NCBI RefSeq assembly: GCF_900215215.1
Contig: NZ_OBDR01000010.1
Span: 1-64,000 of the forward strand
Reading direction: 5' to 3'
Source of the DNA: Methanohalophilus euhalobius
GTDB taxonomy: Archaea; Halobacteriota; Methanosarcinia; Methanosarcinales; Methanosarcinaceae
DNA length: 64,000 bases
Position numbers and translations under genes: made by a program. Shown in pieces: positions 3,300 through 56,490 of this stretch; positions within the stretch are counted from its first letter, which is position 1, and each line of letters starts with the position of its first letter. The notes below the pieces were generated by a model that was not told the origin of the DNA, made no database searches, and saw only the letters and a list, made by a program, of their open reading frames with translations.

Positions 3300-4064
3300 T
3301 TAAAATTGAAGCTTAATTCCAACAGGACAATGGTCCGAACCAGTCACTTCCCTAAAAATAGAAGCCTCGATTAAATTCGGCTCCATATCATCACTTACAA
3401 AAAAGTAGTCCAGCCTCCATCCCACATTACGATCCCTTGCCCTGGTTTTCAAATCCCACCAGGTATAATTACCATCATCTGAATTGAAAAGCCTGAAAGT
3501 ATCAATGAAACCATGAGAAAGGAACTTATCTATCCATTCCCTTTCAATTGGGAGAAACCCGGAATGGTTTTCATTTTGCTTTGGTCTTGCAATATCAACC
3601 GTTTTATGAGCCGTATTCAAATCCCCACAGACAACTATGGAATATCCCTTGTCTTTTAAGGCCTGTGCATAATTCAGGAGAGCCTCATAGAAATCCATTT
3701 TATACTGAAGCCGCTCATCTGAAGAATTACCATTGGGAAAGTAAATATTAAAAAGTACAAAATCATCATAAAAAGCGATTAAAATCCTTCCTTCATGGTC
3801 AAAACGGTTTATACCAAAGCCGTAACGAACCTCTTGTGGCTGGACCTTACTGTAAAGGGCAACCCCACTATAGCCTTTCCTTGCAGCAGCACTGAAATAA
3901 CTGTAATAACCATCTATGCGCCTGATATTTGGTGGGAGCTGGGAAGGGCGGGCTTTTGTCTCCTGCAAACACAGAATATCAGGTGATTCAGAATCCAACC
4001 ATTCCAAAAATCCTTTTTTAGCAACTGCCCGCAAACCATTGACATTCCAGGAAAGCAGTCGCAG
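3300..4064 (-). CDS. xth: Exodeoxyribonuclease III / AP endonuclease, apparent CTG start
   Basis: This is an exonuclease III family enzyme that cleaves DNA at abasic sites in base excision repair. Motifs seen are WNVNG near the N-terminus (metal-binding Asn), CLQETKA (catalytic Glu), [18 protein letters not shown] (Asp and Asn of the active site), WRLDYFFVS and [13 protein letters not shown] (catalytic Asp-His). The only TTG start (4034) would remove the conserved WNVNG. Upstream of it the frame is open to a TGA and contains no ATG, GTG or TTG. A CTG at 4064 lies 7 nt after a GAGGGGG ribosome site and gives [10 protein letters not shown], about 254 residues and the normal family length. It begins 2 nt after the TAA of modE, so translation is probably coupled within the orc1-modE-xth operon. 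Confidence 0.88.
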
Positions 4065-4066
4065 GT

Positions 4067-4606
4067 TTATTCCCCCTCATTTTTCACAGGAGAAATACCT
4101 ATATCGACAGCTCGAATAGTAGCAATCACTTCATCCCCCTCACCGACATCCAGATTTCCTAATTCCTTTTCCCTCAGTATAGAAGTTAATACTGCAGACT
4201 CAACTTCAATCTGAATCCTGGAGATTCCATCAGAAGATTCTACATTCCTGACCTTACAGGGAATATTATTGATCTCACCCTTATTTTCAGAGGATAATTC
4301 TTCCTACACCATCCTGTCAACATACTCACGATTTAGCTCATATTGATTTATCAGATCCCTTCCATACTCTGTAAGAAAAGTACCCTGCTCCTTACCTCCT
4401 CTTACAGTCCTTACAACATCGTGTCCGGTTCTTAAATTCATCTTCTTCAATATGTTCCAGGCATGTTTATAGGAGATCTGGAGCTTTTCACAGGCTTTTT
4501 TCAGGGATCTCTCTTCATCTATAGCCTTCAGGAGACGTACCTTACCGGCACCAATCACAGGTTTGCCTTCATGTGTCAGCCATACTTTTGTACGGGTTTC
4601 CAGAAT
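4067..4606 (-). CDS. modE: ModE-type molybdate regulator with in-frame TAG (candidate pyrrolysine) between HTH and TOBE domains
   Basis: The first part (before 4307) is a LysR-like ModE winged [23 protein letters not shown], then [20 protein letters not shown] and [19 protein letters not shown]. At 4304-4306 there is a TAG. The same frame then continues for 78 codons to a TAA and encodes a complete TOBE (molybdate-binding) domain: [55 protein letters not shown] plus TOBE is the normal ModE architecture, so the TAG interrupts one gene. In Methanosarcinaceae UAG can be decoded as pyrrolysine. The conserved N-terminus runs past the GTG at 4558. The likely start is ATT (4606) or CTG (4603), next to AGGGG and 1 nt after the orc1 stop. 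A truncated HTH-only protein is the alternative product. Confidence 0.75.
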
Positions 4607-4607
4607 A

Positions 4608-5723
4608 TCAACCCCTAATGCATTTTATTACATCATCTGCAGGATAATTCAGACGAATAATACGGGTTCTGCCCCGCATACCTTCACCTGAAAACGAAAC
4701 ATCCAGATAATGCGAATCTTTTAATTTATTCACCAAACTATAAAACCGGGTATATCCCAATTCATTATTGTCATTGAAAAGTTCATAAAGTTCGCCTGCT
4801 TTGATTCCATCATTTTCCGCCACAAGCCGCAAAATCTCTTTTTCATTATCTGAAAGGGATGATATGTTACGCCTCAGATGCAAAAGGCGTGACGATTCAT
4901 AGGCCTTATCCACATCATCCTCTGAAATGTTTTTGCTTGCCCTTTTTTCTGCATTCAGGCCTGATCTCTTGAGTAGATCGATACCAACACGCAGATCACC
5001 GGTCAAATCGACATAATTCACTATTTTCTCTCTGACTTGATCCGGGACTACTTCCGGATAGAAAGCCAGCTGGATTCGGGAAGAAATGATGTCTCCTATT
5101 TCGTCATAAGAATAAGGAGGAAATTCAATCTCTTCAGGCAGGAATACAGAACTCACCTTTGGATCAAACCTGTAAAGTTTTCCCGTATCACTTACAATCG
5201 CAATTACACCCATTTTCACACCGGGATACTGTTCATGGGCTCGTAGTATGGAATACATGATCTCATCGGCATGCCCGCCGTGGAATAAATAATTGATATC
5301 ATCCAGACACACCACCATTACCCTATCCTTTTCGATAAGTTTCAGGACAATTTTTTCAAAAAGTTTCCTGAAAGCTACTCCTGAAGACGGCGGGTCTATA
5401 TTGAAAAGTTTGCGATATATGCGTGAAACAACAGCAAAGCGGGTGGAATCCATCTGGCAATTGATCTTTACAAGGACCACATTCGAGGTGTGTGCTTCTA
5501 TTTCTTCAAAAACCTTCAATACAGCACTGGTTTTTCCGGTGCCGGGTGGACCATAAACAAGACAATTAATAGGTCTCATACCTTTTACTGCAGGCTTTAA
5601 GCTATAGATGAGAGATTGCAACTGAGAATCCCGGTGCATAAATTGTTCGGGGAGATAATCCAGTTCCAGTACGATGGGATCTCTGAAAATTGTCTCATCC
5701 CAGAGAAGCATATTATCTTTCAT
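4608..5723 (-). CDS. cdc6: Orc1/Cdc6 replication initiator
   Basis: This is an origin-binding AAA+ ATPase of archaeal DNA replication. It shows Walker [14 protein letters not shown] (about residue 60), Walker B VVCLDDINYL, sensor and lid sequence GDLRVGIDLLKRSGLNAE, and a C-terminal winged-helix domain (about 295-371). The ATG at 5723 is preceded by AGGAG and gives MKDNMLLWDETIF, matching typical N-termini. The open frame further upstream lacks family similarity. The gene is first in an operon with modE and xth, whose starts overlap or abut preceding stops. Its upstream region holds motifs repeated beyond the next gene (5782-5926 and 6668-6907), a possible origin of replication. Confidence 0.93.
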   Translation of the reverse strand: MKDNMLLWDETIFRDPIVLELDYLPEQFMHRDSQLQSLIYSLKPAVKGMRPINCLVYGPPGTGKTSAVLKVFEEIEAHTSNVVLVKINCQMDSTRFAVVSRIYRKLFNIDPPSSGVAFRKLFEKIVLKLIEKDRVMVVCLDDINYLFHGGHADEIMYSILRAHEQYPGVKMGVIAIVSDTGKLYRFDPKVSSVFLPEEIEFPPYSYDEIGDIISSRIQLAFYPEVVPDQVREKIVNYVDLTGDLRVGIDLLKRSGLNAEKRASKNISEDDVDKAYESSRLLHLRRNISSLSDNEKEILRLVAENDGIKAGELYELFNDNNELGYTRFYSLVNKLKDSHYLDVSFSGEGMRGRTRIIRLNYPADDVIKCIRG

Positions 5724-55446: not shown

Positions 55447-56490
55447 ATGACTGTCCCTGATCCCAAATTCATTCTTTCAAAAAAAGTTATTATGCAGCAG
55501 TATAATCTGGTGGAGGATATAGCTGACATTGTCTCATACAGTTCCAAGACGAACCCCAAAGTCACCTCCGTACTTGAAGAGATGACGGATTGTCTTTTCA
55601 GCGTCCATATGGAAAACGAGCTGAAACATATACGAGACCTATCCAGGACGGTATTTCTGGCACAGGGGTGGAGCAGTGCCTAGGCAAAGGAACTCTATGA
55701 CAGGGGTATTCGCAATTTCATTCTGGACAACGAGCACGACCTGGACGTCCTGCTTGCAACCCTTAAGAACACCAACCGCAAGGTCAACCTTATGCTCAGG
55801 CTCAAACTGCGGGAAAATTCCATCCGTACCGAACGCTATTTTGTCTTTGGTATGCCTTCTGCGACCATAAACCGACGTATTGGCGAACTGATGGATAACC
55901 CTAATATTGGTAAACTTGGCATCCATTTCCACAGGAAGACCCAGAACGTAAGCGAATGGAAACTGCAGCGTGATATTGAGGATGTAATCAGTCCTGAAAC
56001 ACTGGATGCCATCGATATTCTCAATATCGGAGGTGGCTTGCCTTCGGTTTATGCCAACAGTAATGTCGATGTCATCGGAGGTATTTTCAAAAGAATTACA
56101 GATTTCAGGAAATGGTTGCATGACAGGGACATATCCCTCATGATTGAACCCGGCAGGTATATCGCCGCACCTGCAGGCAAACTGGAAACCCGTGTGATGG
56201 CGGTTTATGAGGACAATGTCATCGTGAATGCTTCCGTATACAACAGTGATATGGATGCAATCCTGGTACCTGTAAAACTGCGTGTGGAGAATGAGGTCAG
56301 CAGTAATGAAGGAGAAGCCTATGTGATCAAGGGTTGTACACCCTGTTCAATGGATCTGTTCAGATACCGTGTTTATCTCGAAAAGAGGCCGCAAATTGGC
56401 GACCCGATTACCTTCATAAATGCCGGGGCCTATAATTTCAGGTCTGATTTCTGCGATCTGGAAGAAATCACCACAGAACTTACTGATTGA
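55447..56490 (+). CDS. Fold-III PLP decarboxylase with in-frame TAG (candidate pyrrolysine at residue 79)
   Basis: Reading through TAG at 55681-55683 gives one 347-residue protein of the ornithine/diaminopimelate/carboxynorspermidine decarboxylase type. Before the TAG are the PLP lysine motif VSYSSKTNPKVTSVLEE and HIRDLSRTVFLAQGWSSA. After it, in the same frame, come AKELYDRGIRNFILDNEHDL, LGIHFHRKTQ, LNIGGGLPSVYANSN, EPGRYIAAPAGKLETRV and the active-site VIKGCTPCSMD, with a normal TGA end. Codon choice and frame are undisturbed on both sides, which argues against decay. Position behind deoxyhypusine synthase suggests a polyamine or hypusine-related substrate. Without suppression only a 78-residue fragment would form. 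Confidence 0.82.

What the first reader, a model, noticed from the sequence alone, without database searches (positions are those of the whole stretch)
4067..4606. In-frame UAG exactly at the HTH-TOBE junction of a ModE regulator
The HTH half ends in TAG and the same frame continues for 78 codons as an intact TOBE domain. HTH plus TOBE is the normal ModE layout. In a family that decodes UAG as pyrrolysine, the cell could make two products: an HTH-only protein when UAG terminates and a molybdate-responsive protein when UAG is read. That would link molybdenum gene control to pyrrolysine supply, and thus to methylamine growth. The switch is inference. The frame continuity is seen directly.
Basis: partly seen in the sequence, partly recalled or inferred. 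Interest (0 to 1): 0.85.

Follow-up and report, generated by a model that had tools for sequence, protein, structure and literature searches.

The report
Pyrrolysine codon inside a ModE gene
A gene-control protein of a salt-loving methane-making archaeon (Methanohalophilus) carries a 'stop' codon where its relatives have glutamate, most likely because this organism reads that codon as the rare amino acid pyrrolysine throughout its genome; it is one of a dozen or more such genes, not evidence of a special molybdenum switch.

Summary
On the minus strand of a Methanohalophilus genome, a ModE-type frame (4603..4067) is split by one TAG (4306-4304), followed by 78 open codons and a TAA. Five congeners have an unbroken ModE with GAG (Glu) at that codon, so this is a single G-to-T change in one species.

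Reading the UAG as pyrrolysine is likely: tRNA-Pyl(CUA), PylS and TAG-bearing mtmB are present. A ModE-specific switch is not supported. TAG ends only about 1.3% of ORFs of 150 aa or more. It also interrupts UvrB, aconitase, RuBisCO III, PPK2, a GNAT and others, mostly where congeners have sense codons. A distant congener has its own TAG at a different ModE site, inside the DNA-binding half, where an HTH-only product would be useless. The 'intact, molybdate-responsive TOBE' is also doubtful: the whole main clade has lost the SARN and KST motifs, scores 14-25 bits (55-63 elsewhere) and evolves under weak constraint. No downstream RNA structure and no usable start for the TOBE half were found.

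Best reading: near-neutral Glu-to-Pyl drift in a genome that nearly freed TAG from termination, leaving some HTH-only by-product. New member of a known kind.

The parts
4608..5723 (-). cdc6/orc1-type replication initiator gene directly upstream; its TGA (4610-4608) lies 4 bases before the ModE CTG
   Evidence: the ATG at 5723 is inferred
4307..4603 (-). ModE DNA-binding (HTH) half, 99 codons if started at CTG 4603; strongly conserved
   Evidence: pairwise dN/dS 0.00-0.14 between species
4304..4306 (-). in-frame TAG (codon 107 of the 185-codon open frame); GAG (Glu) in five congeners
4070..4303 (-). TOBE-like half, 78 codons; degenerate in the whole main clade (SARN and KST motifs lost)
   Evidence: pairwise dN/dS 0.27-0.79
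4067..4069 (-). TAA stop of the read-through frame
3300..4064 (-). exonuclease III-like (xth) gene; first codon probably CTG 4064-4062, two bases after the ModE TAA

Best explanation
This is a ModE-family regulator gene in which a Glu codon (GAG) became TAG by one substitution in one Methanohalophilus species. Shown: the codon, the continuing frame, the Glu in relatives, the pyrrolysine machinery, the rarity of TAG as a gene end, and TAG inside other conserved genes. Inferred: Pyl-tRNA competes well with the release factor at UAG genome-wide, so most ribosomes insert pyrrolysine at the end of the linker helix and make the full-length protein, while a fraction stop and leave an HTH-only by-product. 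The change persists because the site is permissive, TAG is hardly needed as a stop, and the TOBE half was already weakly constrained. No ModE-specific regulation need be assumed.
For: GAG in 5 of 5 main-clade congeners with unbroken 185-188-codon frames. tRNA-Pyl(CUA) at C7:4310, PylS at C7:4970, two mtmB with TAG. In 1.85 Mb of this genome TAG ends 18 of 1393 ORFs of 150 aa or more, against 731 TGA and 644 TAA. Coding continues in frame past 8 of 57 TAGs but past only 19 of 1681 TAA/TGA stops (Fisher p = 1e-6; 9e-5 without mtmB). Pfam domains lie across or on both sides of the TAG in aconitase, RuBisCO, PPK2, an epimerase, Fe-ADH, a GNAT and a decarboxylase. UvrB and aconitase have CAG (Gln) at the site in main-clade congeners, and UvrB here has 1 nonsynonymous against 10 synonymous unique changes, so that gene is not decaying and its sequence is not error-rich. 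RuBisCO, PPK2 and a winged-helix regulator are TAG-free in the congeners found. A GNAT keeps its TAG in all six main-clade species. G002 has an independent TAG elsewhere in ModE. Literature: M. mahii citrate synthase has an amber codon presumed read as Pyl (PMC3017947); UAG serves as both sense and stop in pyl archaea, with 20-30% read-through in a reporter without special context (PMC2933860); neutral gain of Pyl in Thg1 (cited in PMC3639795 and PMC2933860).
Against: No peptide or ribosome data. A few TAA/TGA codons also interrupt conserved genes here: within about 185,000 aligned residues roughly 4 clean TAG, 2 TAA and 1 TGA, so part of the TAG set may be decaying genes. pylB and a few other genes end in TAG, so termination at UAG probably still happens. 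TOBE dN/dS is too noisy to show that the frame after the TAG is under selection in this species.
Confidence: 0.75

Rival explanations
1. Regulatory switch: UAG decoding makes an HTH-only or a full-length ModE according to pyrrolysine supply, coupling molybdenum genes to methylamine growth.
For: The codon lies near the end of the linker helix; the HTH half is strongly conserved and could act alone. Acetohalobium decodes UAG as Pyl only on trimethylamine (Prat 2012, cited in PMC8211752).
Against: Not conserved in any congener; many unrelated genes carry TAG; the TOBE half lacks the SARN/KST motifs clade-wide; the G002 TAG lies just before the wing of the HTH, so there a stop would give no working HTH protein; no downstream structure (z 0.50). 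Methanohalophilus is strictly methylotrophic (PMC3017947).
Confidence: 0.05
2. TAG terminates. The TOBE half is dispensable debris and the species keeps an HTH-only (99 aa) repressor; the gene is on the way to losing its sensor.
For: TOBE is degenerate and weakly constrained in the whole clade (dN/dS 0.27-0.79); HTH is conserved; the few changes after the TAG in this species (3 nonsynonymous, 2 synonymous) do not show constraint.
Against: The frame stays open with the highest downstream coding score among the eight internal TAGs found by composition; TAG is tolerated in genes whose C-terminal part is needed, such as UvrB and aconitase.
Confidence: 0.15
3. Sequencing or assembly error at one base.
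For: One draft genome (27 contigs); no reads available; one genome per species only.
Against: UvrB of the same assembly shows 1 nonsynonymous against 10 synonymous unique changes, which does not fit an error-rich assembly; the TAG class is specifically enriched.
Confidence: 0.04

Closest known systems
Pyrrolysine in tRNA-His guanylyltransferase (Thg1) of Methanosarcina acetivorans (Heinemann et al. 2009, cited in PMC2933860 and PMC3639795)
   Same: A single-species TAG in a housekeeping gene of a Pyl-decoding archaeon, absent in relatives; read as Pyl, dispensable, explained by neutral evolution
   Different: Thg1 was shown experimentally; ModE is inferred from sequence only and its downstream domain is already degenerate
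Amber codon in citrate synthase of Methanohalophilus mahii (PMC3017947)
   Same: Same genus; in-frame TAG in a non-methylamine gene; authors inferred pyrrolysine
   Different: Different gene and species
Methylamine methyltransferases MtmB, MtbB, MttB
   Same: In-frame TAG read as pyrrolysine by the same machinery
   Different: There the Pyl is conserved and catalytic; in ModE it replaces Glu in one species
ModE of Escherichia coli (PDB 1b9m, 1o7l)
   Same: Winged HTH followed by TOBE/Mop region; profile match E 1e-15
   Different: E. coli has two TOBE repeats and the SARN motif; here there is one, without SARN/KST, and with a TAG before it

Membership tests
ModE molybdate-responsive regulator | ModE-type N-terminal winged HTH | tested here: met
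   TIGR00637 E 3e-18 (65.6 bits, below the 98.5 cut-off of that model); PDB ModE profile match
ModE molybdate-responsive regulator | TOBE/Mop domain over the curated cut-off | tested here: inconclusive
   PF03459 19.5 bits (21.3) against 22.3; congeners 13.7-25.0; other lineages 54.6-63.4
ModE molybdate-responsive regulator | SARN and KST oxyanion-binding motifs of the TOBE domain (role of these residues from general knowledge of E. coli ModE) | tested here: not met
   EINN or ETNN and RAV in all six main-clade species; S/TARN and KST in all 14 others of the alignment
ModE molybdate-responsive regulator | Binds molybdate and regulates mod genes | not testable with these tools
   Needs protein
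Pyrrolysine-containing protein (neutral type) | Host has tRNA-Pyl, PylS and pyl genes | tested here: met
   (pylT, pylS and pylB at C7; the adjacent ORF fits pylC by position only)
Pyrrolysine-containing protein (neutral type) | Frame continues past TAG as conserved protein; relatives have a sense codon | tested here: met
Pyrrolysine-containing protein (neutral type) | Pyl residue detected in the protein | not testable with these tools
   Needs mass spectrometry
Programmed read-through switch | Conservation of the stop codon across species | tested here: not met
   GAG in five of five main-clade congeners
Programmed read-through switch | Stimulatory RNA element after the stop | tested here: not met
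   103-nt fold z-score 0.50; no Rfam match

The most novel reading that the evidence does not exclude
In this species TAG is in practice a sense codon for pyrrolysine across the proteome, including UvrB, aconitase, RuBisCO III and ModE, so that ambiguous decoding gives each such gene two products and ties their levels to pyrrolysine supply; ModE is one output of this genome-wide coupling.
Probability: 0.25. Interest if true: 0.7.

Novelty: new member of a known kind. Interest (0 to 1): 0.4.

Why it matters
It adds a transcription factor, and with it DNA-repair and central-carbon enzymes, to the proteins likely to carry pyrrolysine, and it shows a genus in which TAG has nearly stopped being a stop signal. 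That gives a cultivable place to measure how a codon drifts from ambiguous to reassigned. For annotation, such genes should not be called pseudogenes. For the ModE claim it is a caution: in such genomes an in-frame TAG is expected background, not evidence of regulation.

Tried and rejected
A blastp screen of TAG read-through ORFs against G003 was swamped by antisense shadow frames and was not used. A first coding-score threshold was too strict and was replaced. The cdc6 comparison was out of frame and is ignored. A separate TOBE start was considered and rejected: the only ATG/GTG/TTG codons after the TAG are GTG 166 and GTG 180, too near the end. A PYLIS-like structure was not found. The AlphaFold model has low confidence outside the HTH (mean pLDDT 68.5) and was used only for secondary structure.

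Full report
What is there. The window lies in a Methanohalophilus genome (G000:C10); the nearest named relatives by ModE are M. profundi (91%) and Methanohalophilus sp. RSK (86%). On the minus strand, between a cdc6-type gene and an exonuclease III-like gene, an open frame runs 4624..4067 with one TAG at 4306-4304. The likely start is CTG 4603, at the position where many other genera have ATG. The part before the TAG is a ModE-type HTH, and the 78 codons after it are TOBE-like. The TAA at 4069-4067 is followed at once by the probable CTG start of xth.

Relatives. Across 60 genomes, ModE is uninterrupted in nearly all. Five close congeners have GAG at the codon. So relatives encode Glu, and the TAG is a single-base change in this species. 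The more distant congener G002 has a TAG in ModE at another place, INERLG[TAG]DVVRT, where G005 has Glu. A stop there would cut the winged helix itself.

State of the two halves. HTH dN/dS between congeners is 0.00-0.14; TOBE dN/dS is 0.27-0.79 in all pairs, with G000 not unusual. The alignment shows why: the six main-clade proteins have a 4-residue deletion and EINN or ETNN in place of S/TARN, and RAV in place of KST, while all 14 other sequences keep both motifs. Their TOBE scores are 13.7-25.0 bits, against 54.6-63.4 in four others. From general knowledge of E. coli ModE these motifs carry oxyanion ligands, so the loss of molybdate sensing in the clade is a reasonable inference, and it predates the TAG.

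How TAG is used in this genome. tRNA-Pyl(CUA), PylS and two mtmB with TAG are present. In 1.85 Mb, TAG ends 18 of 1393 ORFs of 150 aa or more; published pyl archaea are below 6% (PMC9723677). Coding continues past 8 of 57 TAGs but only 19 of 1681 TAA/TGA stops. Interrupted genes include aconitase, UvrB, RuBisCO III, PPK2, a GNAT, an epimerase, Fe-ADH, Cas3 and a PLP-dependent decarboxylase in this window; in several of them a Pfam domain lies across the TAG. UvrB and aconitase have CAG at the site in main-clade congeners; RuBisCO, PPK2 and a winged-helix regulator carry no TAG in the congeners found. The GNAT keeps its TAG in all six main-clade species, with the exact flanking peptide. UvrB in this species shows 1 nonsynonymous and 10 synonymous unique changes, so neither decay nor sequencing error is apparent there. 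As a control, a few TAA/TGA codons also interrupt conserved genes, so not every internal TAG need be a sense codon.

Mechanism. The most likely course is that Pyl-tRNA outcompetes the release factor at many UAGs without special context; a reporter in M. acetivorans showed 20-30% (PMC2933860). ModE then carries Pyl for Glu near the end of the linker helix (low confidence there), with some HTH-only by-product. No downstream RNA structure or known RNA family was found. Steps not shown: actual read-through, its efficiency, and any effect on gene control. If UAG stops many ribosomes, xth, whose start abuts the ModE TAA, could be translated less; this is inference.

Comparison. The pattern matches the neutral gain of Pyl in Thg1 of M. 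acetivorans and the amber codon in M. mahii citrate synthase (PMC2933860, PMC3017947, PMC3639795). A 2025 report of archaea that read all TAG codons as pyrrolysine is recalled from memory and was not found in the library; if it includes this genus, the genome-wide part is already known.

Verdict. Observation confirmed. Pyrrolysine reading is likely (about 0.75). A dedicated Mo-Pyl switch is unlikely (about 0.05).

Noticed in passing
G000:C18:219529-220077: GNAT acetyltransferase with an in-frame TAG conserved in all six main-clade Methanohalophilus species, same flanking peptide GA[TAG]QVYW; a candidate conserved non-methyltransferase pyrrolysine protein.
   Followed up: partly
window 55447-56490 (TAG 55681-55683): PLP-dependent decarboxylase-like gene with TAG where G003 has CAG (Gln); domain spans the codon.
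   Followed up: partly
G000:C21:21278-23254 and G000:C11:14984-17770: UvrB and aconitase each with one in-frame TAG, CAG in main-clade congeners.
   Followed up: yes
L013 (G002 ModE): Independent TAG in ModE of a distant congener at a different Glu position, inside the winged helix.
   Followed up: partly
G000:C7:5689-6750: pylB ends in TAG here and in G003, with a 39-codon in-frame extension running into the next gene; TAG-ended pylB is known in other genera (PMC2933860).
   Followed up: partly
window 4601-4603 and 4062-4064: modE and xth both appear to start with CTG; the modE CTG is in all six main-clade species.
   Followed up: partly
G000:C17:77254-79026: Histidine kinase gene interrupted by both a TAA and a TAG relative to G003; probably decaying.
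   Followed up: no
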